Below, one piece after another: positions 9,901 to 54,753 of a stretch of DNA of 64,000 bases. The stretch lies in NCBI GenBank assembly GCA_013215505.1, contig JABSQZ010000015.1:1-64000 (forward strand). Reading direction: 5' to 3'. The translations under genes and the position numbers were made by a program. The notes below the pieces were generated by a model. It was not told the origin of the DNA. It was given only the letters and a program-made list of their open reading frames with translations, and did not search any database. The stretch comes from Oceanospirillaceae bacterium (GTDB taxonomy: Bacteria; Pseudomonadota; Gammaproteobacteria; Pseudomonadales; Balneatricaceae). How positions within the stretch are numbered: the first letter of the stretch is position 1; each line of letters begins with the position of its first letter.

Positions 9901-9904
9901 AGTG

Positions 9905-11321: not shown

Positions 11322-11343
11322 GCCGGGACCATGCCGTCCCGGC
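11322..11343. terminator. Hairpin terminator between convergent genes
   Basis: GCCGGGAC / GTCCCGGC, a perfect 8-base GC-rich stem with a 6-base loop, sits between the dehydrogenase stop and the stop of the minus-strand GntR gene. No long T-run follows. Confidence 0.5.
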
Positions 11344-11358
11344 AATATCTGTTGCCAG

Positions 11359-12063: not shown

Positions 12064-12232
12064 AGTGGGGACCTTTAATAACCAGGATTAGCGCTAATGC
12101 TCGAACTCATTAACGAAAAGATTGCCCTAAGATAGCTGAGCATCAGCTAAAAGTCACATACAAGCGGGATAAGGGGGCAATTTAAGCGCTATTTGTGCAC
12201 TTTTACTAAGTGGCTTAATAAGAATTTTAATT

Positions 12233-12263
12233 CAGTATACAAACTGTATTCAATCCAGTATAG
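12233..12263. promoter_or_regulatory. Predicted GntR operator cluster upstream of the deaminase gene
   Basis: CAGTATACAAACTG, ACTGTATTCAAT (12243-12254) and CCAGTATAG overlap as a tight cluster, and another ATTGAATAT lies near 12300. The ACTGTATTCAAT core is the reverse complement style of the sites at 8734 and 8814, supporting control of both operons by one regulator. Confidence 0.5.
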
Positions 12264-12354
12264 TTTTTCTCAATTACACTGCATAATATTGCAATCACTA
12301 TTGAATATCGGCAGCTCTGTGATAAATAAGCTGGGCCGAAAATGAGGATAAAGT

Positions 12355-13257: not shown

Positions 13258-13267
13258 GGAGATAGCC

Positions 13268-28429: not shown

Positions 28430-28439
28430 TTTTTTTCCT

Positions 28440-29908: not shown

Positions 29909-29909
29909 C

Positions 29910-30809: not shown

Positions 30810-31576
30810 CCGGTCACCACCACTCCGCCGTCGACGGCGATGGCCTGGCCGCTGATCATGCGGCTGGCTTGTGAAGCTAAAAATAAGGTGGCATCGACTA
30901 TATCTCTGGGCGCTAAATGCTCCTTCAGGCACTGCCTATCTAAATGCGCCGCTAAATCTTCTGGACTCGCCCACATATCCAGTTGCTTTTGGGTGAGTAC
31001 CCAACCCGGCAGCAGCGAGTTAACTCTGATGTTATCGCCACCGAGCTCGCGGGCCAGGGCGCGGGTCAATCCGGTGATGGCCGCCTTGGAGGCGACGTAA
31101 CCCGGATAGCCGGCATTACCCATTAAATAGGATATAGACGAAAAGTTTATAATTGAGCCGTAGCCGAGTTTGCGCATGCCGGGGCTGACTGCCTGAGCGG
31201 TAAAAAAATGTGGCCGTAAGTTTACCGCCATCCCCGCATCCCACTGCTGCGGGGTGTAATCACTCAGTGAGTGGCGGGCATCGTTGGCGGCGTTGTTGAC
31301 CAGTGTAGTGATTGCTCCGTGGGCTTGCTCGGCCTGTTGTATGGCGTTTTGCAAAGCTTCGATATCAGTGATGTCGCACTGGATAAATAGCGGTGTTACT
31401 CCGTGTTTTAACTGCATGTCTGCGACAAATTCGCCGGCATCCGAACGCTGCACAAAAGCGACTTTAGCACCTTGTTCGATAAAACCTTCAGTCAGGGCGG
31501 CGCCGATTCCAGAACCGCCGCCGGTAATAAAGACACTGCTATTTTTTAAATCGTGGAAGGTAACAAATTTTGACAT
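30806..31576 (-). CDS. SDR oxidoreductase, predicted D-galactose 1-dehydrogenase
   Basis: A 256-residue short-chain dehydrogenase. The cofactor motif 'TGGGSGIGAAL' is near residue 18, 'NNAAND' near 92, the catalytic Ser in 'NFSSISYLM' and Tyr-x3-Lys in 'YPGYVASKAAI'. In the order of the operon it should oxidise D-galactose to galactono-lactone, feeding the lactonase. The same fold also serves L-arabinose or fucose dehydrogenases, so sugar specificity is inferred from its neighbours. Its stop overlaps the kinase start, and it lies 85 bases after the dehydratase gene. Confidence 0.8.
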   Translation of the reverse strand: MSKFVTFHDLKNSSVFITGGGSGIGAALTEGFIEQGAKVAFVQRSDAGEFVADMQLKHGVTPLFIQCDITDIEALQNAIQQAEQAHGAITTLVNNAANDARHSLSDYTPQQWDAGMAVNLRPHFFTAQAVSPGMRKLGYGSIINFSSISYLMGNAGYPGYVASKAAITGLTRALARELGGDNIRVNSLLPGWVLTQKQLDMWASPEDLAAHLDRQCLKEHLAPRDIVDATLFLASQASRMISGQAIAVDGGVVVTG

Positions 31577-31661
31577 TAGCCTAATCTCCTTGTGTCCCGG
31601 GCGAAGCCTGGACCAATCAGCTGCTGAATCGGGCTATCTGGGTATGTAATTAGTGCCTGCA

Positions 31662-33377
31662 TTAGTGACTCTCCCTGGTAACGAGGCGGGTATCTTTGCC
31701 CACTAAAAAGTCTAAGTCGGCACCGGTATCGGCCTGCATCACATGATCTATATAGAGTTTTGCGTAGCCACGGGTATAGTGAGGTGGCTCGGGCTGCCAG
31801 TGCTTGCGTCGTTCTTCGAGTTCAGCGTCGCTGACCTCTAATTCTAAAATGCCATCCTTTGCCGAAAGGCGAATTATATCGCCAGTTTTTACCAGGGCTA
31901 AAGTACCACCGGCATTGGCTTCAGGGGCGACGTGTAGTACCACAGTGCCAAAGGCGGTGCCCGACATGCGCGCATCCGAGACCCGCACCATATCGGTGAT
32001 ACCCTTTTCTACTAAGCAGCGCGGTATCGGCATATTGCCAACCTCCGGCATGCCCGGATAACCTTTGGGACCACAGCCTTTAAGCACTAAGATAGTATTT
32101 TCATCCACCGGCAGGTCGGGCAGGTCGATCTTGGCTTTCATATCTTCGATGTTTTCAAATACATAAGCGCTGCCGCGGTGCTCTAACAAATGTTCAGAGG
32201 CCGCCGAAGGTTTAATAATGGCACCTAGAGGTGCTAAGTTGCCGCGCAATACTCGCAACCCAGCAGCGGGCTTTAGGGGTGCATCAAAGCGGTGTATCAC
32301 ATCAAAATTGAAACACTCAGCCCCCTCGCTATAGCTGCTGATGTCTTTGTTTAAAACCGTGTTGGCGGGGTATAGCTTATCCTTTAGCTCTTTTAGTACC
32401 ACTGGCATGCCGCCGGCGTAACAGAAATCTTCCATCAGATATTTACCCGATGGCATGCAGTTGACCAGTAGTGGAATCTCGCCACCAATTTCAAAGTCTT
32501 TCAAGCTAAGTTCTATTTCGGCGCGCCCGGCTATCGCCAGTAAGTGCACCACTGCATTACTGGAGCCACCCACTGCCGCGTTGGCCACAATGGCATTTTT
32601 CAGACTCTCTTTGCTCAGAACCTTAGACATGACCAGATCTTCTTCGACCATCTCAACGATGCGTTTGCCGGTTAGGTGGGCAAGGGCTGCACGGCGCGCA
32701 TCCACTGCCGGTAGCGCTGCGTTAGTCGGCAGGCACAGACCCATCGCCTCTACCAGAGAGGCCATAGTCGAGGCGGTACCCATGGTCATACAGACACCCG
32801 CAGAGCGGCTCATGCCGGACTCGGCTGCCATGAAATCTTGCAGGCTCATGTCACCGGCGCGCACGCTCTCGGAGAATTTCCAGACGTCGGTCCCAGAACC
32901 GATATCTTTACCCCGCCACTTGCCGTTAAGCATAGGGCCGGATGACACAACGATCGTCGGCAGGTCGACGCTGGCAGCGCCCATTAACTGGCCGGGGGTG
33001 GTTTTATCACAACCTCCAAGCAGCACTACGCCATCGATGCCGTAGGCGCGGATACTCTCCTCAACATCCATGGCCAGCAAATTGCGAAACAACATGGCGG
33101 TAGGTTTCATCTGCGTCTCGCCAAGCGACATCACCGGGAATTCCACCGGAAAGCCACCGGCCTCCCAGACTCCGCGCTTGACCATTTCCGCTAAATCACG
33201 CAGTCCAGAGTTGCAGGGAGTCAGCTCTGACCAAGTGTTGCAGATGCCAATGATCGGGCGGCCATCGAAAACGTGGTCGGGAAAGCCTTGATTTTTCATC
33301 CAGCTGCGGTGAATAAAGCCGTCTTTGTCCTGCTTGCCATACCAGGCTTGGGAGCGGCGAGTTTTTTTATCTGTCAT
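31662..33377 (-). CDS. IlvD/Edd-family sugar acid dehydratase (predicted galactonate dehydratase)
   Basis: A 571-residue iron-sulfur dehydratase of the L-arabinonate/D-xylonate dehydratase branch of IlvD/Edd. The cluster cysteines lie in 'CNTWSELTPCNSG', 'GGCDKTTPGQ' and 'AGVCMTMGTAST', and 'DARMSGTAFGTVVLHVAPEA' is the conserved C-terminal block. In classic De Ley-Doudoroff loci this step is done by DgoD, an enolase-superfamily enzyme absent from the window; this non-homologous enzyme is the only candidate for galactonate to 2-keto-3-deoxygalactonate. Its start overlaps the alpha-galactosidase stop as ATGA. Confidence 0.88.
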   Translation of the reverse strand: MTDKKTRRSQAWYGKQDKDGFIHRSWMKNQGFPDHVFDGRPIIGICNTWSELTPCNSGLRDLAEMVKRGVWEAGGFPVEFPVMSLGETQMKPTAMLFRNLLAMDVEESIRAYGIDGVVLLGGCDKTTPGQLMGAASVDLPTIVVSSGPMLNGKWRGKDIGSGTDVWKFSESVRAGDMSLQDFMAAESGMSRSAGVCMTMGTASTMASLVEAMGLCLPTNAALPAVDARRAALAHLTGKRIVEMVEEDLVMSKVLSKESLKNAIVANAAVGGSSNAVVHLLAIAGRAEIELSLKDFEIGGEIPLLVNCMPSGKYLMEDFCYAGGMPVVLKELKDKLYPANTVLNKDISSYSEGAECFNFDVIHRFDAPLKPAAGLRVLRGNLAPLGAIIKPSAASEHLLEHRGSAYVFENIEDMKAKIDLPDLPVDENTILVLKGCGPKGYPGMPEVGNMPIPRCLVEKGITDMVRVSDARMSGTAFGTVVLHVAPEANAGGTLALVKTGDIIRLSAKDGILELEVSDAELEERRKHWQPEPPHYTRGYAKLYIDHVMQADTGADLDFLVGKDTRLVTRESH

Positions 33378-35455
33378 AATTTTTTACCTTCGATAACCCA
33401 TAAGGTGGCCGCAAAAGCTACCGGTAGTTGTATACCGCGCTCCATTAACACCCGACCGCTAAGGGTAACTGGCGCAGTTTTCAGCGCAGGATTGCCGCGG
33501 CTGGTGGGCGCTGTTTGTTGCGGGTTGTGTAGTTTAATTTGATAGCGAGTTGTTGGCTGTAGACCAGTTAGTCGCAGCGGCCTTGGCAGCACTTGTTGAC
33601 TAACGCTCATCTGGGCGACAAAAGCCACGAACTGACTCTCGTCTGCCGCCAGTTGTAACTCGCCCAGTACCGCGTTGTCATCACAATCTAAGCGCAGTAT
33701 ATGGCCGCAGTGTAGCCAGTCTCGGTTACTCTTGTACCAGCGGCTGACGTCTTGAATCAGTGCAATATCAGAGTCGCTCAGCTCTCTGGGATCCATTTCA
33801 AAACCCAAGTGTCTGCTGGCTGCTACCCAGGCGCGAAAAGCGATTGGCAGCTCACGTCCAGAAGTGTGACAGCGGGCGGGTCCGATATGGCTGCCGGTGA
33901 TTTCACTGGGGAAAAACAACGCGGCGTTGTGCTGCATCCAAAAGCGCTCCAGAGCATCGTTAGAATCTGACAGCCAGATGCGCTGGGTGTGTTTCAATAT
34001 GCCAAAATCGATGCGTCCGCCACCGGATGAACAGCTCTCTATTTCAACCTCTGGATGTGTCTCCCGCAGGTCGCTTAACAGTTGATAGAGCCCCCGGGTT
34101 TGAGCGGCGTCGACTTGGGGTAATACGCGGTTGTGATCCCACTTGATGTACTCGATCGGATACTCGTCTAACAAGCTGGAAATGCGCTCGAATAAATACT
34201 CCCGCACTGGTGCTTGAGAGAGATCTAAAACTAATTGCTGGCGTCCTAGCACTTGTTGCTGCGGGCCCAGTACCCACTGTGGATGGCGGCGGTACAAATC
34301 GCTGTCAGGGCTGACCATCTCAGGTTCAAACCAGAGACCAAAACCCATATCGAGGCTGTGTACATGTTCGATCAATGGCCCTAAGCCCTGTGGATATTTT
34401 TTTGGGTCTACCCACCAGTCGCCCAAGCTGCTGCAATCGTCGTTGCGGTTTTTGAACCAGCCGTCATCTAAGACAAAGCGCTCAGCGCCTAAGTTGGCGG
34501 CTCGGCTGGCAATGTCTGTCAGGGTCGCCAGGTCATGTTGAAAATACACGGCTTCCCAGCAGTTATAGTGCACCGGCCTAGCTTTGTTACTATCGGGAAA
34601 AGAGACGATATTGTGGCGTAAATGGCCTTGGAATGCTCGGGCTAAACCATTCAGTCCGGCATTGGAATAAGTGGCGTACAGAGGAGCCGTTTCGAAAATC
34701 TGGCTAGTCGTTCTATCTGTCTGAGAGGCGTGGCCAAATTGAATTTGGCGTCTGCCGTCAGGGAGCTCTTCAGCCAGCATCTTGTGTCCGCCAGACCAGC
34801 CGTAATGCAAACCATAAGCTGAACCAGCGCTGTTATTAGTGCCGGTGCAGGGCATCAGCAGCGCCGGAAAATGCTCGTGGGAACTGCGGCCTAAATGGCA
34901 CTCGCGCAAGCGCGTTCCAGGGCGCCAGGGGACGCTCTGCATTTGCAGCTCACCACACCAGCGACCGGAAAACTCTAAAGTGTGTTCACTGTTTTGCGGT
35001 GCAGGTAATACCGGAGCTGCCAGCCAGTCGATATATATAGGCTGTTCACTTCGCAAAGTAGCGCTAAAAGTGAACATATTGGTCTGCACATCGATCAGAG
35101 TTTGCAGCTGGTAATTAATGCCCAGCGCACTGTCACTGTAATTGAGGCACAGGCAATGGTCACTTCGTTGTTCACTGACAAAAGCTAAGTTTAGCCACAG
35201 CTGGGCACCCATAGCGTCGCGCAGTTGCAGCCCGGTCTGACCGGGAAAAGAGTGGCTGTATTGCGGCGCCACTGATAAATCGGAGACCCGATCTAAGGTG
35301 GCGCAATTGTTGTCATACTTAGCCGAGTTGGCAACTTGCTGAAGGTCTTCGTCCTCACTAAGTATCCCACCCCAGTAAACCACTGTCGGCAGCTGCTGCT
35401 GTTCACTGCACAGCACTATAGTTTGTTCAAGAGTGTCCAGACGCCAGGTTTGCAT
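33374..35455 (-). CDS. GH36 alpha-galactosidase
   Basis: A 693-residue cytoplasmic alpha-galactosidase with an N-terminal beta-sandwich (about 1-280), a TIM barrel (about 290-620) and a C-terminal beta domain. The nucleophile is D440 in 'IKWDHNR', the acid/base Asp lies in 'WLSDSNDALER' (497-500), and 'LDDGWF' and 'ESCSSGGGRIDFG' contribute to the substrate pocket. It lacks a signal peptide, so it acts on imported melibiose/raffinose-type sugars. It overlaps the dehydratase start and follows the permease genes after about 80 bases. Confidence 0.93.
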   Translation of the reverse strand: MQTWRLDTLEQTIVLCSEQQQLPTVVYWGGILSEDEDLQQVANSAKYDNNCATLDRVSDLSVAPQYSHSFPGQTGLQLRDAMGAQLWLNLAFVSEQRSDHCLCLNYSDSALGINYQLQTLIDVQTNMFTFSATLRSEQPIYIDWLAAPVLPAPQNSEHTLEFSGRWCGELQMQSVPWRPGTRLRECHLGRSSHEHFPALLMPCTGTNNSAGSAYGLHYGWSGGHKMLAEELPDGRRQIQFGHASQTDRTTSQIFETAPLYATYSNAGLNGLARAFQGHLRHNIVSFPDSNKARPVHYNCWEAVYFQHDLATLTDIASRAANLGAERFVLDDGWFKNRNDDCSSLGDWWVDPKKYPQGLGPLIEHVHSLDMGFGLWFEPEMVSPDSDLYRRHPQWVLGPQQQVLGRQQLVLDLSQAPVREYLFERISSLLDEYPIEYIKWDHNRVLPQVDAAQTRGLYQLLSDLRETHPEVEIESCSSGGGRIDFGILKHTQRIWLSDSNDALERFWMQHNAALFFPSEITGSHIGPARCHTSGRELPIAFRAWVAASRHLGFEMDPRELSDSDIALIQDVSRWYKSNRDWLHCGHILRLDCDDNAVLGELQLAADESQFVAFVAQMSVSQQVLPRPLRLTGLQPTTRYQIKLHNPQQTAPTSRGNPALKTAPVTLSGRVLMERGIQLPVAFAATLWVIEGKKL

Positions 35456-35537
35456 TACTTCACCGCTCCTGGTGTCATGCAGACTATGATGTATTCCTGC
35501 AAGACCAAGAATATAGCGACAGTTGGGCGCTGCTGCA

Positions 35538-36386
35538 TTATTTAACCGCTCCTAAAGTCAGGCCGGCGATGAAGTGTTTTTGCATGGCGAAGAACATCAG
35601 TACCGGAGGCATAGCAGCGACAATCGAACCGGCTGAAACTAAGTGCCATTTGGCGACCCACTGGCCGTTCAGCGAATACAGACCCGCAGTGACTGGCTGA
35701 GTATCGGCGCCCTGAGTCAACACAGTGGCCCAGAAATAGTCGTTCCAGATAAAGGTAAAGATCAGCACTGAGAGCGCAGCGATTGCCGGTTTCATCAGCG
35801 GTAGTACTACGTACCAGAAAATCTTAATTTCCGAGACGCCTTCGACTCTGGCAACTTCGATCAGCTCACGGGGCAAATTTTTGATAAAGTTGCGCATAAA
35901 CAATGTGCAGAAACCCGTTTGGAAGGCGATATGAAACAGCGCCAGGCCGGTAGTGGTGTTATACATACCCATTGACAAGGTCAAATCGCGTACCGGGACC
36001 ATCAGTATCTGAAAGGGAATAAAGTTGCCGGCAACAAACATAAAAAACACTAACATGTTGCTTTTAAATTTATAGATGCCCAGGGCGAAACCGGTCATAC
36101 AAGACAAAATCAAAGTGCCAATAACCGTGGGAATAGTGACTTTAAAACTGTTTAATATGTATTTACCAATCGGCGAGTCAGTGAAAACGGCGGTATAATT
36201 TTCCACCATATTAAACGAGGTCGGCCAGCCCCAGTAGTTGCCGGCGGTGATATCACCTGCGGAGCGGATCGAAGTAATGGCTACCGCGATCAATGGCAAT
36301 AGCCAAAGGATAAGAGCGATCGGCAGGGCAATTTTGTAGATCAGTTGCACACTGGGGGCGGTTTTCGCAATAGGTGTGGGAAACAT
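35538..36386 (-). CDS. Carbohydrate ABC transporter permease (MalG type)
   Basis: A 282-residue inner-membrane permease with six transmembrane segments. The EAA loop 'LIEVARVEGVSEIKIFWYVV' and the C-terminal 'AGLTLGAVK', a MalG-family ending, are present. The ATG at 36386 is preferred because AGAGAGGA lies seven bases ahead of it; an upstream ATG at 36404 is inside that ribosome site. It pairs with the MalF-type permease encoded upstream, and with the binding protein and ATPase forms the galactoside importer. Confidence 0.9.
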   Translation of the reverse strand: MFPTPIAKTAPSVQLIYKIALPIALILWLLPLIAVAITSIRSAGDITAGNYWGWPTSFNMVENYTAVFTDSPIGKYILNSFKVTIPTVIGTLILSCMTGFALGIYKFKSNMLVFFMFVAGNFIPFQILMVPVRDLTLSMGMYNTTTGLALFHIAFQTGFCTLFMRNFIKNLPRELIEVARVEGVSEIKIFWYVVLPLMKPAIAALSVLIFTFIWNDYFWATVLTQGADTQPVTAGLYSLNGQWVAKWHLVSAGSIVAAMPPVLMFFAMQKHFIAGLTLGAVK

Positions 36387-36469
36387 CTCAGAGTCCTCTC
36401 TCATATGGATACATTTTATAAATTATCCTTGCACAGGAGTTGGTTATTCCCAAAGCTGTCGGCTGCATT

Positions 36470-37357
36470 TCAGTGTCCTTTCTCGTCACGATACATTTTA
36501 TAGAGGAAGCCGGCGATATAGACCATCATGATTAAAAACAGCACTACAGCGATAGCCGCGCCATAGCCCATCCGGAATCCGTATTCAGAGAAGGCCTGCT
36601 CGTACATGTAATAGGCCAGTACCCGGCTTGAACCCCAGGGGCCGCCGCTGGTCATAATAGAAATCAAATCGAAGCTGCGCAGAGCGCCTATCACTGTGAC
36701 TACTACGGCGATAAAAGTGGCGGGTCTAAGCTGCGGTAAAATGATGTACCAGAGCATCCGCCAGCCTTTGGCGTTATCCAACCTGCCAGCCTCAATTTGC
36801 TCTGGGTCGACTGAATTTAAACCGGTCAAATATAAAATCATGCAGTAAGCTGTTTGCGGCCATAATCCGGCGACAATAATGCCATAAGTGACAAAACGCT
36901 CATCGGCGAGTACCGCGATAGAGTCAAAACCGATAGCGTTTAACAAGACGTTCATCAGACCGTTGGTGGGGTCATAAAACCAGGAAAATACCAGTCCTAC
37001 TACCACTTGTGAGATAACAAAGGGGAAGAAGAACAAGGATTTATAAATGCGGATGCCGCGCACGGTTTGATTGAGGAATAATGCTACAAACAATCCGGCG
37101 GGGACCGCCAGCATATAGAGCACTAACCAGATAATATTGTTTTGCAGGGCAGTGTAAAAGGCCTCGTCATCCATCAGCTCGACATAGTTGTCCAGACCGA
37201 CATATTCTTTTTCACCTAAGCCGTCCCAGGCGTAAAAGGAAATATCTAAAGATTGAAAAACCGGCAAAATGACATACAGGGCAAACATAAAAATGCCCGG
37301 CGCCAGAAATAACCAGGGAGCCAGTTTTAACTGATTGGCCTTCCAAAAAGCACGCAT
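36470..37357 (-). CDS. Carbohydrate ABC transporter permease (MalF type)
   Basis: A 295-residue permease with about six transmembrane segments, beginning 'MRAFWKANQLKLAPWLFLAP'. The EAA loop is 'QIEAGRLDNAKGWRMLWYII'. The ATG at 37357 has TGAGG upstream; the longer frame to 37372 begins with TTG inside the ribosome site. It lies after a hairpin that separates the highly needed binding protein from the membrane components, and its partner permease follows. Confidence 0.9.
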   Translation of the reverse strand: MRAFWKANQLKLAPWLFLAPGIFMFALYVILPVFQSLDISFYAWDGLGEKEYVGLDNYVELMDDEAFYTALQNNIIWLVLYMLAVPAGLFVALFLNQTVRGIRIYKSLFFFPFVISQVVVGLVFSWFYDPTNGLMNVLLNAIGFDSIAVLADERFVTYGIIVAGLWPQTAYCMILYLTGLNSVDPEQIEAGRLDNAKGWRMLWYIILPQLRPATFIAVVVTVIGALRSFDLISIMTSGGPWGSSRVLAYYMYEQAFSEYGFRMGYGAAIAVVLFLIMMVYIAGFLYKMYRDEKGH

Positions 37358-37383
37358 AGTGTGAAACCTCAAAATAAAAAAAT

Positions 37384-37458
37384 ACCGCCACTGTAAGGTA
37401 ACGGGTAAAGGGATCCTGGGTTTAATAGCAGGACTTGTCTACCTGTTGCAGTGGCGGT
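37384..37458 (-). promoter_or_regulatory. Intercistronic hairpin between binding protein and permease genes
   Basis: ACCGCCACTG (37384-37393) pairs perfectly with CAGTGGCGGT (37449-37458), extended by an AAGGT/ACCT pairing inside. Such stems after a binding-protein gene usually reduce read-through and protect the upstream mRNA, giving excess binding protein. Confidence 0.65.
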
Positions 37459-37471
37459 GCAGTCGCATTAA

Positions 37472-38716
37472 TTACTTATAAACGCGGTTACGTACTTTTT
37501 CCAGACGCTTGAGGATAGTTGCTAGACGCTCTGGCTTAACCATAAATTCCTGGAAGCCTTCCATGCCAGCTTTGGCCATTTCAGCCGGGGCATCGCGATC
37601 GAAGAACTGGGCAACTTGTGAAGTCTTAGAGAGCATTTTGAAGCCCGCCTGTAAGAACTCATCATCGCCAGCAATTGAAGCGGAGTTGATAGGCAGCTGA
37701 CCTAAAGTCTCATTCATTTTTGTCTGTACATCGGCGCGGGCAAGATAAGCTAAGAATTTCTTAGCATCAACTTTGTTTTTAGCGTTAGCGGGGATGTGCA
37801 GTGTATCGGTAGGCGCATCTTCTGCCATCTCGATACCCGGAGTGATTTCAGGGAACTGGAAGAAACCTAGCTGATCTTTAGTCAGACCGGCTTCACGCAG
37901 TGGTGCCACTGCAAAGTTGCCCATGATGTACATGGCCGCTTTGCCTTGTACCATAGGGGCCAATGCTTCCTGCCAGCTGTAAGCGGCGTGGTTTTCCAGG
38001 AAGAAACCGGCATCTACCAGCTCTTTCCAGTTGTTCATAGTCTTAACGACACGCTCATCCGTCCAGGCAATTTCACCTTTAGTCAGTGCCATGTGGAAAT
38101 CAAAACCGTTGGTACGCATGTTCAGGTAATCAAATACACCCGCTGCAGTCCAAAGGTATTTAGTGCCTATAGTGATAGGGGTAATGCCTGCTGCAGTAAG
38201 CTTAGCTCCGGCTGCTTTGAACTCTGCCCAATTAGTCGGAACTGCTATGTCATTGGCGGCGAATAGATCTTTGCGGTAGTAAACGCCCCACTGGTAATAA
38301 GTGTATGGCACGCCCCATTTTTTACCGTCAATGGTCATAGAAGCGGCGGCAGAAGCCAGCGACTTGTTTAGACCGTTTTCTTCCCAGACATCGTCAACAC
38401 TTTCAAATAATCCTGCATTTACGTATGGCAGCATGCGGTTGCCAGCATACCAAGTGGCCAAATCAGGAGCCTCGGCAGTCAGGAAGTTGCGAATAGAAGT
38501 CTTGTAACCCTCGTGATCGAACAAGTTCAAAGTCACTTGCACGTCTGGATTTTCAGCTTCAAAACCTGCAATCACATCTTCGAAGGCTTTTTTAGGTGCC
38601 GGGTCAGATGTATCGGTATTGATCACCAGTGTTCCGGCAAACGCGGATGAGCTAAACAAAGTGGCTAATGCCAACGTTGCCAGACTCTGTTTAAGTAAGC
38701 TTTTTTTATTTTTCAT
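37472..38716 (-). CDS. Carbohydrate ABC transporter substrate-binding protein
   Basis: A 414-residue periplasmic binding protein of the family 1 (MalE-like) type, with a signal peptide of about 27 residues ending 'SSSAFA'. The mature part starts 'GTLVINTDTSDPAPKKAFED', and contains 'DLATWYAGNRMLPYVNAGLF', 'YYRKDLFAANDIAVPTNWAE' and 'GKAAMYIMGNFAVAPL', the standard lobes of the family. It is the first gene of the galactoside operon, divergent from the IclR gene across an operator-like palindrome. The expected ligands are alpha- and beta-galactosides, judged from the two hydrolases in the operon. Confidence 0.92.
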   Translation of the reverse strand: MKNKKSLLKQSLATLALATLFSSSAFAGTLVINTDTSDPAPKKAFEDVIAGFEAENPDVQVTLNLFDHEGYKTSIRNFLTAEAPDLATWYAGNRMLPYVNAGLFESVDDVWEENGLNKSLASAAASMTIDGKKWGVPYTYYQWGVYYRKDLFAANDIAVPTNWAEFKAAGAKLTAAGITPITIGTKYLWTAAGVFDYLNMRTNGFDFHMALTKGEIAWTDERVVKTMNNWKELVDAGFFLENHAAYSWQEALAPMVQGKAAMYIMGNFAVAPLREAGLTKDQLGFFQFPEITPGIEMAEDAPTDTLHIPANAKNKVDAKKFLAYLARADVQTKMNETLGQLPINSASIAGDDEFLQAGFKMLSKTSQVAQFFDRDAPAEMAKAGMEGFQEFMVKPERLATILKRLEKVRNRVYK

Positions 38717-38812
38717 CAGATGTACTCTCTATAGTTATTGCTATTTAGACTTTTCTCAGCTGGGCCTCATTAATACCTGAGAATTGTCCGGCTAATATTT
38801 TTTGTTGTTCCA

Positions 38813-38865
38813 AATAGTGAAACTAGGTTTCAACTATTGACAATATGCGCCTTTTACCTGATACT
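38813..38865. promoter_or_regulatory. IclR-type palindrome overlapping the iclR promoter
   Basis: AATAGTGAAAC-TAG-GTTTCAACTATT (38813-38838) is a near-perfect palindrome with a GAAAC/GTTTC core, as in IclR-family operators. It overlaps TTGACA (38837-38842), which is followed 17 bases later by GATACT (38860-38865), giving the plus-strand promoter. The minus-strand galactoside promoter should lie just beside it. Confidence 0.65.
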
Positions 38866-38905
38866 TGTCAACAGTTATGATGTAAAATTTACCCAGAGAA
38901 TAGAC

Positions 38906-39694
38906 ATGGCAACGGCAAAGAATACCGACGGCACTGTTGGTAAAGCATTAAGTTTGTTAGATAAAGTGGCTTCAGTTGGCAGGCCGGTACGCTTTAGTGA
39001 ATTACTGGCAGAAAGTGAGCACCCCAAGGCGACTTTGTACCGTCTGTTACAGACACTGACCAATCAAGGCATGCTCGGTTATGACAGTGAGAGGCAAATG
39101 TACAGTTTGGGAGTGCGCTTAGTTAGATTGGCGCATGCCGCCTGGCAGCAATCGTCGCTGGCTCCTATCGCCAGACCACTGCTGGATCAGCTGTCGTTAA
39201 AAGCCGGCGAGACAGTGCATTTAGGGCAGCTGGATCACGGACAAGTGCTGTATGTAGATAAGCGCAATCCAGCATCACCGCTGGCCATGTTCTCTGACGC
39301 TGGCAAAATAGGCCCGGGTTACTGCACCGGGATAGGTAAAGCGATGTTGGCTTTTTTAGATCAAGAGCAGCGTCAACGCTTAGTGCAACAGCAGTCCTAT
39401 CATCGCTATACCCCCAGTACTTTAACCAGTGCTGAGGCGCTGTGCACTGAGTTGGCGGAGATTCGCCAACAGGGAATCGCCTTTGACCGCGAGGAGCACG
39501 AAGCCAATATTATTTGTATCGCTGCCCCTATCCTTTCTGGAACTAATAGAGTCCTGGGTGGCTTGTCTATTACCACTTCTACGTCGCGCTACTCGTTGCA
39601 GCAGCTGGAAGAATTTAAACAAGATCTTCTCGAAACCGCTCATAAAATAGGTCAGCTTGCCGAATCCTGGCACTTTCCTGAAACTAACAGTTAA
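38906..39694 (+). CDS. IclR-family regulator of the galactoside operon
   Basis: A 262-residue IclR regulator starting at the ATG at 38906; a longer in-frame start at 38837 would overlap the promoter. The N-terminal winged helix holds 'TVGKALSLLDKVASVGRPVRFSELL' with 'HPKATLYRLLQTL' as recognition helix, and the C-terminal effector domain contains 'VLYVDKRNPASPLAM', 'GYCTGIGKAMLAFL' and 'GIAFDREEHEANIICIAAPI'. It is divergent from the binding-protein gene and probably represses the operon through the palindrome at 38813-38838; the inducer is likely a pathway intermediate. Confidence 0.88.
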   Translation: MATAKNTDGTVGKALSLLDKVASVGRPVRFSELLAESEHPKATLYRLLQTLTNQGMLGYDSERQMYSLGVRLVRLAHAAWQQSSLAPIARPLLDQLSLKAGETVHLGQLDHGQVLYVDKRNPASPLAMFSDAGKIGPGYCTGIGKAMLAFLDQEQRQRLVQQQSYHRYTPSTLTSAEALCTELAEIRQQGIAFDREEHEANIICIAAPILSGTNRVLGGLSITTSTSRYSLQQLEEFKQDLLETAHKIGQLAESWHFPETNS

Positions 39695-39711
39695 TAATAT
39701 CCGGAGTTGCA

Positions 39712-40773
39712 ATGTCAGGCGTATCCTTAAAAAAAATAATCAAGAAATACGATAATTTACAAGTTATTCACGGCATTGATTTAGAGATCGCTGCGGGAGA
39801 GTTCTGTGTATTTGTAGGGCCGTCCGGTTGCGGCAAGTCGACCTTGCTGCGGATGATTGCCGGTCTGGAAGAGACTACCGGCGGACAAATGAGTATCGGT
39901 GGTCGCGATGTGACTACTGCTGATCCCGCCGAGCGCGGTATCTCTATGGTGTTTCAGACTTATGCTCTGTATCCGCATATGACCGTAGAACAGAACATGG
40001 GCTTCGGCCTGAAAATGAACAAGGTCGACAAACAGGTGATCAAAGAAAAAGTCGCCGCAGCCTCTAAGATACTCAAACTTGATGATTATTTGGGACGTAA
40101 ACCTAAAGCATTGTCTGGCGGTCAGCGTCAGCGGGTGGCCATTGGCAGAGCGATAGTGCGTGGCCCTGAGGTGTTTTTGTTTGATGAGCCACTGTCTAAT
40201 TTAGATGCTGAACTTCGGGTGGAAATGCGCGTGGAAATTGCCCGTCTACACAATGAAATCGGCGCCACTATGGTTTACGTGACTCACGATCAAGTCGAAG
40301 CTATGACTTTAGCCGACAAAATTGTGGTATTGCGCGATGGCAGAATTGAGCAAGTAGGGGCTCCGTTGGAGCTCTATGATAACCCGGACAATAAATTTGT
40401 CGCTGGATTTATTGGCTCCCCGGCGATGAACTTTTTGCAGGGTGTAGTAGAAGGTAATGGAGTCAGAGTGGCGGCGCTGGACAATAAGCTACTGGAAACG
40501 TCTGTGCAACTACCGGCAGAAGGTGCTGCTGTGACCGTCGCTCTTCGTCCACAGACGATTAGTTTGCAGGGTGAGCAGGGAACATATACGGTGGATATCG
40601 CCGAGGAATTAGGTGGTGTTTCCTACCTCTACTTAACTAGCACGACTGGGGAGCGCCTGGTGGTAGAATCGCGGGGCAAGTCGCTAGTCACTCACGGTAG
40701 CAAAGTCGCGATCAATTTCGAAGCAGATCAAGTGCTGTACTTTGCCGCAGACACTGAGGTTCGATTACGTTAG
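39712..40773 (+). CDS. Carbohydrate ABC transporter ATPase (MalK/UgpC type)
   Basis: A 353-residue ATPase with Walker A 'GPSGCGKST' near residue 38, signature 'LSGGQRQRVAIGRAI', Walker B 'VFLFDEPLSNLD', the switch His in 'YVTHDQVEAMTLAD', and a C-terminal TOBE regulatory domain (about 240-353). It lies 17 bases after iclR in the same transcription unit and provides the energy for the galactoside permeases encoded on the other strand. Two hairpins end the transcript. Confidence 0.92.
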   Translation: MSGVSLKKIIKKYDNLQVIHGIDLEIAAGEFCVFVGPSGCGKSTLLRMIAGLEETTGGQMSIGGRDVTTADPAERGISMVFQTYALYPHMTVEQNMGFGLKMNKVDKQVIKEKVAAASKILKLDDYLGRKPKALSGGQRQRVAIGRAIVRGPEVFLFDEPLSNLDAELRVEMRVEIARLHNEIGATMVYVTHDQVEAMTLADKIVVLRDGRIEQVGAPLELYDNPDNKFVAGFIGSPAMNFLQGVVEGNGVRVAALDNKLLETSVQLPAEGAAVTVALRPQTISLQGEQGTYTVDIAEELGGVSYLYLTSTTGERLVVESRGKSLVTHGSKVAINFEADQVLYFAADTEVRLR

Positions 40774-48013: not shown

Positions 48014-51000
48014 ATGTCAGCATTAGGGGATTTCAAGCAGCGCCATTGCACAGCTCATTTTTATCAGCAGTGCCCGCCATTAACAACAATAACCCATTTG
48101 GATAGAGATGTAGTCATGACAGCATATTGGACAAAAGTGTTAAAAGAGATCTGGGATATTGACGCCAGTTTAACTCAGCTAGATGGGGAGTACGATCTCA
48201 ACTTTTTGCTCTCTGGCGAGAGTCAAGGCGTGTTAAAAGTGATGCGTGCCGATTGCGATAGCAGCTTTATCGATATGCAGTGCCGGGCTTTTCAGCACTT
48301 GTCGGATAACGCTGCTGCAGTGCCTGTCCCCAGTGTTTTAGCGACCAGTGCTGGTGAGTTATACACTACTGTATCAGGGCCCGAAGGCGAGCCGCGGATT
48401 GTCTGGTTGCTAGAGAAAATGCCGGGTCGGACCTACGGTCAATTTCTGCCGCAGAGCTTGGATTTAATTCATCACTTAGGTCAGTCAGTCGGGGTCATGG
48501 ATAAGGCATTGCAGGGCTTCAAACACCCGTCACTGCAACGTCAATTTAAGTGGGATTTAACCACTGCTCAATGGATTGGGGATGAAATTGCAATTTTCTC
48601 TGAAGCCAATAAGCGTCAGCTGATTACAGATATCCTCAGCCAATACCAGCAGATACAGTCAGCATTGCAGCAGCTCCCACAGGGAGCGATTCACAACGAC
48701 GTCAATGATTACAATATCTTAGTTTCCGGGTCACTGACCGAGGCCGCGCGTGTAACTGGGTTGATTGATCTCGGCGATATGTGTGCCGGGCCGAGAATCT
48801 GTAACCTGGCGATCACTGCCGCCTACGTGGTATTGGGCCAGGATCAGCCGGAACAGGCGCTGGAGTCCCTGGTAATGGGCTATCACAGCGAATATCCGCT
48901 GACATCTACAGAGTTGGAAATGCTCTGGCCACTGCTGAGAATGCGCTTGGCTGTCAGTGTGGTCATTTCAACATTAGTGTCCAGGGAAAAGCCGGATGAT
49001 CCCTATGTGCTGATCAGCCAGGGACCTGCCTGGCAATTCCTGCTCGATAACAAGGTCAATTTTGAATTACTAGGCGGCAGATTGCGGGTGGCCTGCAATC
49101 TGGCGGTCACAGACACAGCGACAGAAATAGCTGCCTGGTTAGACAGTGAGCGCGGTAATTTTGCGCCTATATTAGGCTGTGATTTGGCCACTGCAGCTAT
49201 GCGTGAACTGTCAGTTGAGGCGAGTACAGTACCTAAAAACCCCTTTGCTATGAGCGCTGAAGAAGCTTTAGTACTCGGTGGAGCATACGACCCAGCCGAG
49301 GGCGTTTGGCTGGGTTACTACAATGAGCCCAGGTTGGTCTACACCGATGCGGCATTCAGTAAGGGTCCTTACAAAGCCAGCAGCAGACGCACCGTACACA
49401 TTGGCGTGGATGCTTTCGCCGAGGCGGGCAGGAGCGTGCAGACACCGCTAGCTGCCACAGTGGTTTGCACCGAAAATCGTCGCGCCAACCTGGATTACGG
49501 CGGTATGGTTATCCTCAGCCACCAAACCACAGCTGGCGATGTTTTTTACACTTTGTACGGACATTTAGATCCAGAGTCGATCAGCAGTTTGAGCAGCGGC
49601 CAAGCCCTGCAGAGCGGTGAAACTTTTGCCGCTCTGGGTGGCATGCACGCCAACGGTGGCTGGAATCCACACTTGCATTTTCAACTTGCCCTGAGCACTA
49701 AAGGCATAGGTGCAGACTGGCCGGGTGTGGCCGACCCCGATGAGCTGGCTCTGTGGAACGCGCTCTGCCCCAACCCGGCGGCGCTGATGAATCTTCCAGA
49801 TGCGAAAACGGGATATAAGCCAGTGGCCAAAGCAGCTGTACTGGCTCAGCGTCGGGCGCATTTTGCTGAGAACGTAAAGCTGACTTATGCCGACCCGGTC
49901 ATGTTTCTGCGCGGCTGGCGGCATCACTTATTTGATGAGTGGGGTCGCCCTTACTTAGACAGTTACAATAACGTGCCTCACGTGGGGCACGCACATCCAC
50001 GGATTCAGGCGGTAGCGGCCGATCAGCTGTTGCGGATGAACTCAAATACCCGCTATCTACACCCGGCCCAGACTGCATTTGCCGATAAAGTATTATCCAA
50101 ATTGCCCAAATCACTGTCAGTGTGTTTCTTTGTCAATTCCGGTACTGAGGCCAACGAGCTGGCGTTGCGTTTAGCCAGGGCACATACCGGTGGTAAAGAC
50201 ATGGTGACTCCCGACCACGGCTATCACGGTAATACTACCGGCGCTATCGATATCTCCGCCTATAAATTTAATGCCAAAGGCGGTGTAGGTCAGGCGGATT
50301 GGGTGCAGCTGGTGGATGTTGCCGATGAATATCGGGGCCGCTTTAAAGCCGACGACCCACAGCGCGCTGAAAAATACGCCGCCTTAGTGGACGATGCACT
50401 GGCGGCAATCGACGCCCGGGGTGGTAAATTGGCCGGCTTTATCGCCGAGACTTTCCCCAGTGTCGGCGGCCAGATTATTCCCCCGCAGGGCTATCTGGCG
50501 AGTGTTTATAAGCGTATCAGAGCCGCTGGCGGGGTCTGCATAGCAGATGAAGTACAGACCGCGCTGGGTAGATTGGGCGAGTACTATTTTGCCTTTGAGC
50601 AACAGCAGGCACTGCCGGATATCGTGGTGATGGGCAAGCCGATAGGCAACGGCCAACCTATAGGCGTATTAGTGACAACCCCGGAAATAGCCGCCAGCTT
50701 TGCCCACGGGCCTGAGTATTTCTCTACCTTCGGTGGCTCTAACTTGTCATGTCGGGTAGGTACAGAAGTATTGCAGATAGTCGATGATGAAGGGTTGCAG
50801 GAAAATGCCCGGGCTATGGGTAACTTGCTGCTTAACGGCTTGCGCCAGTTGCAGAAAAAATATTCAGTGATAGGTGATGTACGTGGCTACGGCTTATTTA
50901 TTGGTGTGGATCTGGTCACTGACAGAGAGACCCGCGAGCCCGCCACGGCAGTGGCAGATTATGTGAAGAATCGCATGCGCGAACACCGTATCTTGATGGG

Positions 51001-51130
51001 CACAGAGGGACCGGCGGATAACATACTGAAAATACGCCCGCCGCTGACCATTGAAGAGCAAGATGTGCAGATGATTCTGACCCTGCTTGAGCAAGTGTTA
51101 GCAGAGGCCGAAAGCTTACTGGCGGATTGA
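48014..51130 (+). CDS. Three-domain protein: APH-type kinase, M23/LytM peptidase, class III aminotransferase
   Basis: A 1038-residue fusion. Residues ~35-360: aminoglycoside-phosphotransferase-like kinase with catalytic H227-N-D229...N234 and metal-binding D252 in 'IDLGD'. Residues ~410-600: LytM/M23 domain with all zinc ligands (H462, D466, H553, H555 in 'PHLHFQ') and the catalytic-type H517 in 'YGHL'. Residues ~610-1038: PLP aminotransferase class III fold with D845 in 'CIADEVQTALGR' and Schiff-base K875 in 'VMGKPIGNG'. Kinase and aminotransferase resemble hydroxylysine kinase and AGXT2L-type phospho-lyases, which phosphorylate and then eliminate phosphate and ammonia. The peptidase role is unknown; no signal peptide is seen. 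An alternative start is 48116. Confidence 0.85.
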   Translation: MSALGDFKQRHCTAHFYQQCPPLTTITHLDRDVVMTAYWTKVLKEIWDIDASLTQLDGEYDLNFLLSGESQGVLKVMRADCDSSFIDMQCRAFQHLSDNAAAVPVPSVLATSAGELYTTVSGPEGEPRIVWLLEKMPGRTYGQFLPQSLDLIHHLGQSVGVMDKALQGFKHPSLQRQFKWDLTTAQWIGDEIAIFSEANKRQLITDILSQYQQIQSALQQLPQGAIHNDVNDYNILVSGSLTEAARVTGLIDLGDMCAGPRICNLAITAAYVVLGQDQPEQALESLVMGYHSEYPLTSTELEMLWPLLRMRLAVSVVISTLVSREKPDDPYVLISQGPAWQFLLDNKVNFELLGGRLRVACNLAVTDTATEIAAWLDSERGNFAPILGCDLATAAMRELSVEASTVPKNPFAMSAEEALVLGGAYDPAEGVWLGYYNEPRLVYTDAAFSKGPYKASSRRTVHIGVDAFAEAGRSVQTPLAATVVCTENRRANLDYGGMVILSHQTTAGDVFYTLYGHLDPESISSLSSGQALQSGETFAALGGMHANGGWNPHLHFQLALSTKGIGADWPGVADPDELALWNALCPNPAALMNLPDAKTGYKPVAKAAVLAQRRAHFAENVKLTYADPVMFLRGWRHHLFDEWGRPYLDSYNNVPHVGHAHPRIQAVAADQLLRMNSNTRYLHPAQTAFADKVLSKLPKSLSVCFFVNSGTEANELALRLARAHTGGKDMVTPDHGYHGNTTGAIDISAYKFNAKGGVGQADWVQLVDVADEYRGRFKADDPQRAEKYAALVDDALAAIDARGGKLAGFIAETFPSVGGQIIPPQGYLASVYKRIRAAGGVCIADEVQTALGRLGEYYFAFEQQQALPDIVVMGKPIGNGQPIGVLVTTPEIAASFAHGPEYFSTFGGSNLSCRVGTEVLQIVDDEGLQENARAMGNLLLNGLRQLQKKYSVIGDVRGYGLFIGVDLVTDRETREPATAVADYVKNRMREHRILMGTEGPADNILKIRPPLTIEEQDVQMILTLLEQVLAEAESLLAD

Positions 51131-52385: not shown

Positions 52386-53216
52386 TCACGTCCCTTTAAT
52401 ATTAGTAATCGCCGCCAGCAAGCTCGGAGCCACCGGAGTATTTTTACTGTAGGCTAACCCCACCACCCGTTCCAATTGCAAGTCGCTGATCTCACAAAAA
52501 CTTAAATCTGCACGTCCATCCAGCGAGTGTAGTGGCACGATAGAGACCCCCAGTCCGGCCGCCACTAGATCTAGTGCATACTCTTCAGTTTTTACCGTGG
52601 CTTTAACTTTCAGGTTGAGGCCGCGTTTGGCAATGGCGAATTGCCAGGAGTCTATGATGTCGCAGGGAGACCGACTGATGAAAGAACAGTTGTTTAGTTG
52701 CTCTAAACTGACGCTGGATTCTTTGGTTAAAGGGTGTTGCAGGGGAACCGCTAATACGTATCTGTCGACCCATAATTTGTGAAAGATCTCATCTTTTTGC
52801 AAGACTGTCTGCGAGATGATCCTGGCATCGGCCTCTGCGTTGGCATCAACTAAGGTCAGATCCAGATTAGGTAGAGTCTGCATTAATTTTTGGATTAGCT
52901 TGGAAACGCGCTTGCCGGAGAGAAAAGGCAATAGCGCCAGTTTAAAAGACAGCTGTTCAGGATTTTCCTGGAACTGTTGTTTAATTTGCTGCACATCTGC
53001 CAGTACCTGGCAGGCCTTAGGGTAGAGCGCGGTGCCTTCAGTGGTGGGGGTTATGCCCTTGGAGTGGCGTACAAACAGCGCGCATTCTAACTCTGACTCG
53101 AGCTGTTGCACAGCACCGGAGATAGACGGCTGGGCGACAAAGCAGCGCTTGGCGGCGGCACTAAAACTGTGCTCTTCATAGACGGCGACAAAATATCGTA
53201 AAGATCGAAAATCCAA
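52386..53216 (-). CDS. LysR-family regulator
   Basis: A 276-residue LysR-type regulator: 'MDFRSLRYFVAVYEEHSFSA', 'AAKRCFVAQPSISGAVQQLE' and 'LECALFVRHSKGITPTTEGT' resemble the NAC/Cbl-like group with 'RSLRYF' start. The start is a TTG at 53216 with GGAG nine bases upstream. It is divergent from the FAD oxidoreductase gene at 53467, its likely target, with 250 bases between. Confidence 0.85.
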   Translation of the reverse strand: MDFRSLRYFVAVYEEHSFSAAAKRCFVAQPSISGAVQQLESELECALFVRHSKGITPTTEGTALYPKACQVLADVQQIKQQFQENPEQLSFKLALLPFLSGKRVSKLIQKLMQTLPNLDLTLVDANAEADARIISQTVLQKDEIFHKLWVDRYVLAVPLQHPLTKESSVSLEQLNNCSFISRSPCDIIDSWQFAIAKRGLNLKVKATVKTEEYALDLVAAGLGVSIVPLHSLDGRADLSFCEISDLQLERVVGLAYSKNTPVAPSLLAAITNIKGT

Positions 53217-53466: not shown

Positions 53467-54753
53467 ATGAGCTATCCAGATACCTATTACGCGAGTACGG
53501 CAATTAGCACTGCGCCGCGCAGCGCCCTGAGCGAGGATGTCAGCGTCGATGTCTGTGTGGTCGGTGGGGGTATCGCCGGGTTGAGCTGTGCACTGGAGTT
53601 ACTCGAACAGGGCAAGAGTGTCGCTATAGTAGAGCGGGAGGCAGTGGCCTGGGGAGCTTCAGGTAGAAACGGTGGGCTGGTGTCAGCAGGTTGGGCGCAG
53701 GGCAATGATGCATTGGAGAAAAAGCTGGGTTTGTCGCACGCACAAAAATTATTTGCTTTATCAGTGCAGGGGGTTGAGCAAATTAGCAATAACATCCAGC
53801 GCTTTGCACTGCGCGATTGTCAGCTGCAAATGGGCCGGCTGAATGTTGCACGCTATCCGCAGCGGCAAAAATTTATCGCCAGACAGCGGGTAATGCAAGA
53901 CAAATATCAGTACCAGCAGGACTACCTGGATACTGATCAGGTACGACAGATCTGTCATACTCAGCGCTATTTTGACGGACTTTACGATGCCAGCTCTTTT
54001 CACTTCCACCCGCTGAATTACTGTTTGGGGCTGGCGAATGTGATCGAGCAAAAGGGCGGTTTGATCTATGAACAGAGCGCTGTTGTCAATATCAGCAGAG
54101 ACAAAAATAAGCAGCTAGTCAGCATTGCAGATAGCCCTGCTAAAGTCAGTTGTGAAAACGTAGTATTTTGCGGTGGTGGATACAGCGGCAAAGAGATACA
54201 GGCGCTGCAGCGCGCTTACCTGCCTATTGCCACTTATATGTTGTTAACAGAACCGCTCGGTGATCTAGCGGCGCAGCTGATTAGCCGTCCCTACAGCATC
54301 AGTGACGACCGCCGCGCCGCCGACTATTACCGCATCGTAGAAGGGGATCGGTTACTCTGGGGGTCGAGAATTACCACCGACAATCAAGACAATGTGGAAA
54401 AACTTTGCAGCTTGTTACGTGAGGACTTATGCTCGGTTTATCCGCAGTTGCAAGAGGTTAAAATAGACAAGGCCTGGTCGGGGCTGATGGCCTATGCAGG
54501 GCATAAAATGCCGATAGTACAGCAGCAGCAACCTGGGGTGTGGATCTGCTCATCCTTCGGCGGTCACGGCCTGAATACCGGCACCATCTGCGGTATCAAA
54601 GTGGCCCAGGGGATTTGCGCCATAAATCAGGACTATCAGTTATTATCCCCCTTTGGCTGCGACTGGAATGGTGGGGTATTAGGTCCTATGGTGGCTAATT
54701 TGACTTACAAGTACTTACGTTTAAAAGATAAAATTCAAGAGGCTGCTTTTTAA
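53467..54753 (+). CDS. FAD-dependent oxidoreductase (PuuB/DAO family)
   Basis: A 428-residue flavoprotein with the FAD motif 'VCVVGGGIAGLSCALELLEQ' at about residue 30, 'WGASGRNGGLVSAGWAQGND' (as in gamma-glutamylputrescine oxidase and related enzymes) and the C-terminal 'SSFGGHGLNTGTICGIKVAQ'. It should oxidise an amine or amino acid, perhaps a polyamine conjugate. No glutamylputrescine synthetase or aldehyde dehydrogenase adjoins it, so the substrate is open. It is divergent from a LysR gene and convergent with an EamA transporter. Confidence 0.82.
   Translation: MSYPDTYYASTAISTAPRSALSEDVSVDVCVVGGGIAGLSCALELLEQGKSVAIVEREAVAWGASGRNGGLVSAGWAQGNDALEKKLGLSHAQKLFALSVQGVEQISNNIQRFALRDCQLQMGRLNVARYPQRQKFIARQRVMQDKYQYQQDYLDTDQVRQICHTQRYFDGLYDASSFHFHPLNYCLGLANVIEQKGGLIYEQSAVVNISRDKNKQLVSIADSPAKVSCENVVFCGGGYSGKEIQALQRAYLPIATYMLLTEPLGDLAAQLISRPYSISDDRRAADYYRIVEGDRLLWGSRITTDNQDNVEKLCSLLREDLCSVYPQLQEVKIDKAWSGLMAYAGHKMPIVQQQQPGVWICSSFGGHGLNTGTICGIKVAQGICAINQDYQLLSPFGCDWNGGVLGPMVANLTYKYLRLKDKIQEAAF

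What the first reader, a model, noticed from the sequence alone, without database searches (positions are those of the whole stretch)
48014..51130. Kinase, LytM peptidase and class III aminotransferase fused in one intact protein
All three domains keep their catalytic residues (H227-N-D229 and D252; H462/D466/H517/H553/H555; D845/K875), so this is not a decayed fusion. The kinase and aminotransferase halves resemble the hydroxylysine kinase and phospho-lyase pair (the AGPHD1/AGXT2L types in animals), which would phosphorylate and then eliminate ammonia and phosphate. Why a zinc cell-wall-type peptidase, usually periplasmic, sits in the middle of an apparently cytoplasmic enzyme is unexplained. 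I recall that such fusions occur in other bacteria, but the middle domain has no known role to my knowledge.
Basis: partly seen in the sequence, partly recalled or inferred. Interest (0 to 1): 0.75.

Follow-up and report, generated by a model that had tools for sequence, protein, structure and literature searches.

The report
Fused hydroxylysine-breakdown enzyme with embedded peptidase
A single bacterial protein appears to carry both enzymes needed to break down hydroxylysine, an amino acid typical of collagen, with an intact zinc-peptidase domain of unproven purpose between them; the fusion is already a catalogued protein family, but gene neighbours in some relatives now point to collagen as the food source.

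Summary
In detail: window 48014-51130 (+) is one frame of 1038 codons with an APH-type kinase, an M23 zinc-peptidase domain and a class III PLP enzyme. Translation probably starts at Met35 (48116). Over the window and 65 relatives the five M23 site residues are invariant, 66 of 66. It belongs to NCBIfam PRK06148 ('hypothetical protein'; 1445 bits, cut-off 1128): the architecture is known, the function unassigned. The PLP half is closest to human phosphoethanolamine phospho-lyase. Neighbours in a minority of relatives point to hydroxylysine: piperideine-6-carboxylate dehydrogenase, a saccharopine-dehydrogenase-type pair (two-domain and split relatives only), hydroxyproline genes, and beta-galactosidase with a second glycosidase. 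The nearest relatives (90%) are contigs of an Osedax (bone-worm) symbiont, and the window carries a hydroxyproline-type cluster 33 kb away. The M23 part belongs to a subfamily that also exists alone, apparently without export signal; it is absent from two-domain relatives, so it is accessory. I propose that it frees hydroxylysine from short peptides (weak). Verdict: ordinary as architecture, useful as a substrate assignment, still open for the middle domain.

The parts
48014..51130 (+). Whole open frame, 1038 codons plus stop (member of NCBIfam NF004799/PRK06148)
48116..48118 (+). Probable true start (ATG, Met35); protein then 1004 aa
   Evidence: room in relatives' frames; pLDDT < 50 for residues 1-30; sequence; inference
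48116..49048 (+). APH-type kinase half, predicted hydroxylysine kinase; H227-N-D229 at 48692-48700, D252 at 48767-48769
49049..49825 (+). Middle region: linker (about residues 346-430, with helices) plus M23 zinc-peptidase domain
49394..49690 (+). Pfam Peptidase_M23 match; H462 49397-49399, D466 49409-49411, H517 49562-49564, H553 49670-49672, H555 49676-49678
49829..51118 (+). Class III PLP fold, predicted phospho-lyase; D845 50546-50548, K875 50636-50638
52386..53216 (-). LysR regulator, neighbour; a related regulator lies downstream of the gene in L010 and L015 and about 6 kb away in L011
53467..54753 (+). FAD amino-acid oxidase-type protein (best NCBIfam model L-pipecolate oxidase AmaA, 181.7 bits, below its cut-off of 600); also near the gene in L010 and L015, and by eye as a fragment at the edge of L011
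5622..14770 (.). Hydroxyproline-type catabolic cluster in the same window: ABC transporter, Pro_racemase-family protein 8830-9900, FAD dehydrogenase 9902-11140, regulator 11359-12063 (GntR type, by eye), DHDPS-family 12355-13257, aldehyde dehydrogenase 13268-14770
   Evidence: role inferred

Best explanation
The protein is a cytosolic fusion enzyme for hydroxylysine catabolism. The kinase half phosphorylates the 5-hydroxyl of hydroxylysine; the PLP half eliminates phosphate and ammonia to give 2-aminoadipate semialdehyde, in equilibrium with piperideine-6-carboxylate, which a dehydrogenase elsewhere in the genome (C6:100780-102204) oxidises. The central M23 domain is an accessory zinc hydrolase, most likely a peptidase that frees hydroxylysine from short imported peptides. 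Shown here: domains, intact and conserved catalytic sites, family membership, predicted fold, gene context in relatives, a P6C dehydrogenase over its cut-off in the genome. Inferred: location, substrate, reaction order and the role of M23. The confidence given is for the kinase-lyase on hydroxylysine; for the peptide role of M23 I would give about 0.35.
For: Lyase: best PDB sequence match is human ethanolamine-phosphate phospho-lyase 6tor (406.6 bits), then phospholyase A1RDF1 5g4i (292.8), against 183.4 for the next; Foldseek ranks 1-4 are these two, 6tor at 43% identity and TMt 0.97. Product: an L-piperidine-6-carboxylate dehydrogenase over its equivalog cut-off of 730 lies 88 bp upstream on the same strand in L017 (806.6 bits), and others lie within about 7 kb in L063 (809), L021 (815.3) and L038 (578.5, cut by the locus end): 4 of 65 three-domain loci, 4 lineages. 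With 834,636 neighbourhood bases and an assumed one such gene per 4.5 Mb, about 0.2 are expected. The own genome has one over the cut-off, 809.2 bits. A saccharopine-dehydrogenase-type pair lies next to 6 of 17 two-domain, split or fragmentary loci, 5 lineages. Collagen link: racemase- and D-amino-acid-dehydrogenase-type genes near L058, L060, L064 and L084 (4 of 65, 3 lineages), in L058 a 4-hydroxyproline epimerase over its cut-off (572.9 against 376). GH2 beta-galactosidase plus MGH1-like glycosidase at L060/L084, L083 and L069 (3 lineages), with galactokinase in L060/L084 (Pfam/NCBIfam run on L060 and L069, the others by BLAST), as expected for glucosyl-galactosyl-hydroxylysine (linkage described in PMC8626586, passages). 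Nearest relatives: Osedax symbiont Rs2 contigs L009/L010, 90%. M23: site residues 66 of 66 and 19 of 19; mean identity to the window 58.6%, above the kinase's 49.1%.
Against: No enzyme assay in any tool. 61 of 65 three-domain loci showed no P6C dehydrogenase and 61 of 65 no hydroxyproline genes in the fetched flanks (several flanks are short), and none of the 65 has the saccharopine-dehydrogenase-type pair, which was seen only at two-domain and split loci. The window gene's immediate neighbours (LysR, FAD oxidase, DMT transporter) do not name the substrate. The Ruegeria TM1040 copy has a BCCT transporter and an annotated membrane dipeptidase nearby, and the S. meliloti and Shinella copies an Lrp/AsnC regulator and an amino-acid ABC binding protein, so other amino compounds are possible. 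6tor itself acts on phosphoethanolamine and no PHYKPL structure was among the listed PDB hits. For the peptide role of M23: oligopeptide-ABC genes near only 3 of 50 three-domain lineages, by my rough estimate no more than chance.
Confidence: 0.72

Rival explanations
1. The kinase-lyase pair acts on a different vicinal amino alcohol (ethanolamine, 1-aminopropan-2-ol or similar), giving acetaldehyde or propanal; hydroxylysine is at most a side substrate.
For: Closest solved lyase is the human phosphoethanolamine enzyme. Neighbourhoods differ widely between lineages and most show no hydroxylysine-type gene.
Against: P6C dehydrogenase, the saccharopine-dehydrogenase-type pair, hydroxyproline genes and galactosidases cluster with the gene in different phyla; none of these is needed for ethanolamine.
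Confidence: 0.15
2. The M23 domain is a structural or regulatory zinc domain (spacer or oligomer former) without hydrolase activity.
For: It is absent from 12 two-domain relatives that keep kinase and lyase, and none of 12 searched genomes with two-domain or split forms has a separate copy at E 1e-6. In PRK06149 (P0001, 1609.3 bits, cut-off 973) the zinc motif is lost while the protein persists.
Against: All five site residues are invariant in 66 of 66 and 19 of 19, including H517 and H553, which are catalytic rather than zinc ligands in M23 peptidases (recalled). Stand-alone copies keep them too.
Confidence: 0.3
3. The M23 domain hydrolyses something other than a hydroxylysine peptide, for example an amide or cell-wall-derived fragment, and was joined for co-regulation only.
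For: Stand-alone copies sit beside genes with no visible hydroxylysine link (in L119/L120 and L154 an MFS-type transporter, named by eye, 35% alike) and share the extra residues E438, R440, Y443, R459, W550 and Q557 with the fused ones (53 of 53; 18 of 19, L150 differing), which suggests one substrate class not tied to hydroxylysine.
Against: The fused form recurs in several phyla with M23 always between kinase and lyase, which suggests a pathway link.
Confidence: 0.3
4. Sequencing or assembly artefact joining separate genes.
For: None found.
Against: Three-domain frames in 62 of 77 loci (two of them cut by contig ends) and in 3 further loci.
Confidence: 0.01

Closest known systems
NCBIfam NF004799 (PRK06148, 'hypothetical protein')
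   Same: Same length, order and domains; 1445 bits against a cut-off of 1128
   Different: Nothing structural; the family carries no function, the context evidence here suggests one
NCBIfam NF004800 (PRK06149, 'aminotransferase')
   Same: Kinase, middle region and lyase in the same order; the window scores 709 bits (cut-off 973, not met)
   Different: In the one member read (P0001, S. meliloti, 1609.3 bits) the M23 zinc motif is lost
Vertebrate hydroxylysine kinase (HYKK/AGPHD1) with PHYKPL and ETNPPL phospho-lyases (Veiga-da-Cunha et al. 2012)
   Same: Predicted same two reactions; lyase half 43% identical to ETNPPL 6tor. From recall, that paper's abstract says bacterial bi- and tri-functional fusions gave the clue; the paper is not held
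   Different: Separate proteins in animals, no M23 domain (recalled)
LytM/lysostaphin-type M23 peptidases
   Same: Fold and zinc motifs (Foldseek: LysTt72, LytM, lysostaphin among the top ranks)
   Different: Lies between two enzymes that use cytosolic substrates, no visible export signal; extra conserved Y-x-E-x-R-x-x-Y, R459 and N-G-x-W motifs

Membership tests
NCBIfam NF004799 / PRK06148 | Score over the curated whole-protein cut-off (1128 bits) | tested here: met
   1445 bits, residues 33-1033
PLP phospho-lyase (ETNPPL/PHYKPL type) | Closer to phospho-lyases than to class III transaminases | tested here: met
   6tor 406.6 and 5g4i 292.8 bits, next 183.4; Foldseek ranks 1-4
PLP phospho-lyase (ETNPPL/PHYKPL type) | PLP lysine and cofactor aspartate present | tested here: met
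   K875 64 of 66, D845 65 of 66, misses are contig end or X
PLP phospho-lyase (ETNPPL/PHYKPL type) | Releases ammonia and phosphate from 5-phosphohydroxylysine | not testable with these tools
   needs enzyme assay
Hydroxylysine kinase (HYKK/AGPHD1) | APH fold with intact catalytic and metal-binding residues | tested here: met
   Pfam APH 70.3 bits; H227/D229/D252 66 of 66, partly selected by a search pattern
Hydroxylysine kinase (HYKK/AGPHD1) | Closer to HYKK than to other APH kinases | not tested
   No HYKK sequence was at hand; no PDB match for the kinase half at E 0.01; the best other NCBIfam match of this half beside the two fusion models is homoserine kinase, below cut-off
M23 peptidase | H-x3-D and H-x-H zinc/catalytic motifs and M23 fold | tested here: met
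   Pfam 44.7 bits against 28.7; Foldseek on the predicted model
M23 peptidase | Peptide-bond hydrolysis | not testable with these tools
   needs assay
LytM-type cell-wall hydrolase | Export to periplasm or outside (signal peptide) | tested here: not met
   By inspection only: the N-terminus leads into the kinase fold; stand-alone L119 and L121 begin without an obvious signal; no signal-peptide program was run

The most novel reading that the evidence does not exclude
An M23 subfamily without export signal has been recruited as a dedicated intracellular hydrolase for collagen breakdown: one polypeptide cuts hydroxylysine out of short (perhaps deglycosylated) collagen peptides, phosphorylates it and eliminates phosphate and ammonia. 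In some Bacteroidota and Planctomycetes the kinase-lyase lies in glucosyl-galactosyl-hydroxylysine utilisation loci (glycosidases, in one lineage also galactokinase and hydroxyproline genes) for which my nine paper searches listed no description.
Probability: 0.28. Interest if true: 0.72.

Novelty: new member of a known kind. Interest (0 to 1): 0.45.

Why it matters
If right, a family annotated only as 'hypothetical protein' or 'aminotransferase' in marine and soil bacteria gets a substrate and a pathway, and bacteria gain a route for the collagen amino acid hydroxylysine, including symbionts of bone-eating worms (L009, L010 and L013 are Osedax-symbiont records). It also makes a concrete test of what an M23 peptidase domain can do inside the cytosol.

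Tried and rejected
Oligopeptide transporters as support for a peptide role of M23: only 3 of 50 three-domain lineages (0 of 10 two-domain ones) have them nearby, by my rough estimate no more than chance; rejected as evidence. A lost M23 being replaced by a separate copy: 0 of 12 searched genomes (L076 not held, L070 not given). An oligopeptide-type ABC cluster (by eye) near the kinase-less M23-lyase protein of L156 is a single case. The galactose cluster in the window (26534-40773) could fit galactosyl-hydroxylysine, but it holds an alpha-galactosidase and looks like an ordinary galactoside pathway, so I did not use it. A single origin of the three-domain form: on a quick lyase tree of 58 rows (a chosen subset) the label needs 5 changes, starred branches force only 2, and several rows are long-branched, so gains and losses are not settled. 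Gene calls by length were replaced by codon-scored ones. Papers: 9 searches listed no paper on a bacterial hydroxylysine kinase-peptidase-lyase; the library holds open-licence papers only. Of papers I saw listings, and passages of PMC8154272, PMC8626586, PMC12138971 and PMC5200902; none was read whole.

Rows dropped: in the residue count the loci L072, L078, L081, L083 and L085 were left out because the frame is split, partial or cut; L065 and L051 are cut by contig ends and counted with gaps. The structure prediction used 47 of the 66 three-domain proteins, the M23 alignment 49 of the 66 plus 4 stand-alone ones.
Full report
Observation. The frame 48014-51130 (+) encodes 1038 residues without an internal stop. 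Pfam places APH at 56-294, Peptidase_M23 at 461-559 and Aminotran_3 at 639-1029, all above cut-off. The start is probably Met35 (48116): in 52 of 65 relatives (one only because its contig is cut) the frame leaves fewer than 34 residues ahead of that position, and residues 1-30 have pLDDT below 50.

Family. NCBIfam NF004799 (PRK06148, 'hypothetical protein') matches over residues 33-1033 with 1445 bits (cut-off 1128); the sister model NF004800 (PRK06149) does not reach its cut-off. So the fusion is known to annotators. From recall, Veiga-da-Cunha et al. 2012 used bacterial bi- and tri-functional fusions to find human hydroxylysine kinase; the paper is not held. A 2025 review that discusses gene fusion lists it among its references (passages).

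Relatives. One genome scan with six exact peptide patterns gave 77 loci: 62 have the three-domain frame (L051 and L065 cut by contig ends), 10 a two-domain kinase-lyase without M23 (Shewanella, Endozoicomonas, Pseudoalteromonas, Chitinophagaceae, another Bacteroidetes bin and two Planctomycetes), and 5 are split or partial. Among 274 genomes of the class, 4 exceed the family cut-off, the window's own included. Over window + 65 three-domain proteins (62, 3) the M23 residues H462, D466, H517, H553 and H555 are 66 of 66; no search pattern contains them, whereas one pattern is the kinase motif HNDVNDYN. Nineteen further loci found by an M23 query keep them as well. Mean identity to the window is 49.1% for the kinase, 58.6% for M23 and 69.6% for the lyase: the middle domain is under real constraint. 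The nearest relatives are Osedax symbiont Rs2 contigs at 90%.

Lyase half. PDB sequence matches: 6tor human phosphoethanolamine phospho-lyase 406.6 bits, 5g4i phospholyase A1RDF1 292.8, dialkylglycine decarboxylase 183.4. An AlphaFold2 model of the whole protein from 47 sequences has mean pLDDT 89.6 and pTM 0.88; Foldseek puts 6tor first at 43% identity and TMt 0.97.

Context. In L017 a P6C dehydrogenase (806.6 bits, cut-off 730) lies 88 bp upstream on the same strand; others lie within about 7 kb in L063 (809), L021 (815.3) and L038 (578.5, cut by the locus end): 4 of 65 three-domain loci, 4 lineages. Next to 6 of 17 two-domain, split or fragmentary loci, and to none of the 65 three-domain ones, is a pair of proteins with AlaDh_PNT_N and Sacchrp_dh_C domains, as in saccharopine dehydrogenases (Pfam on the L073 pair, the rest by BLAST; that the first is a saccharopine dehydrogenase is inference). 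L058, L060, L064 and L084 (3 lineages) carry proline-racemase-family and D-amino-acid-dehydrogenase genes; in L058 the racemase scores as 4-hydroxyproline epimerase above its cut-off (572.9 against 376). L060 and L084 (one lineage) also have two GH2 beta-galactosidase-type proteins, an MGH1-like glycosidase, a galactokinase and a piperideine-2-carboxylate-reductase-type protein around the gene; L069 has an MGH1-like/GH2 fusion directly upstream of a two-domain gene, and L083 both kinds of gene upstream of a kinase cut by the contig end. Collagen hydroxylysine carries Glc-Gal (PMC8626586, passages). All this fits hydroxylysine. Against: most loci show none of these neighbours, and the Ruegeria TM1040, S. 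meliloti and Shinella plasmid copies sit by a BCCT transporter or an amino-acid ABC binding protein.

Own genome. One P6C dehydrogenase over the cut-off (C6, 809.2 bits). The window has a hydroxyproline-type cluster at 5622-14770; its racemase-family protein is below every specific cut-off (best 367.9 against 550 for trans-3-hydroxyproline dehydratase, 262.1 against 376 for the epimerase), so the exact reaction is open.

M23 domain. A model of residues 346-604 has pLDDT 92.8 and matches LysTt72, LytM and lysostaphin. Stand-alone homologues occur (L118-L121, 33-40% identity over the aligned parts; in a sample of 398 phylum genomes 19 have the domain at E 1e-8, 8 loci of them as frames of 216-320 codons). 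Extra residues E438, R440, Y443, R459, W550 and Q557 are invariant in 53 sequences and in 18 of 19 others. One protein has M23 and lyase but no kinase (L156). In PRK06149 of S. meliloti (1609.3 bits, cut-off 973) the zinc motif is lost. Genomes with two-domain or split forms had no separate copy (0 of 12). So the domain is widespread, active-looking and dispensable for the kinase-lyase. A peptidase on hydroxylysine peptides is my best guess, with little direct support.

Judgement. The architecture is a known kind; the substrate assignment from context and the apparently signal-less M23 subfamily are the useful additions.

Noticed in passing
5622-14770: Hydroxyproline-type catabolic cluster with ABC transporter; the racemase-family protein has, by eye, a Ser in place of the first catalytic Cys, and reaches no specific cut-off.
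   Followed up: partly
26534-40773: Galactoside cluster: GH42 beta-galactosidase, GH36 alpha-galactosidase, 2-dehydro-3-deoxy-6-phosphogalactonate aldolase over its cut-off, dehydratase, sugar ABC transporter, IclR regulator.
   Followed up: partly
53467-54753: FAD oxidase of the pipecolate-oxidase kind (below cut-off) downstream of the gene, also in L010 and L015; could feed the same P6C pool.
   Followed up: no
L060:2655-15252 and L069:3154-7950: Candidate glucosyl-galactosyl-hydroxylysine loci; in L069 the two glycosidase domains are one 1599-aa frame.
   Followed up: partly
L156:6220-8295: M23-lyase protein of 692 aa without the kinase, with an oligopeptide-type ABC cluster (by eye) about 2 kb away.
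   Followed up: no
L119, L120, L154: Stand-alone M23 copies next to related MFS-type transporters (by eye; about 35% identity between L119 and L154).
   Followed up: no
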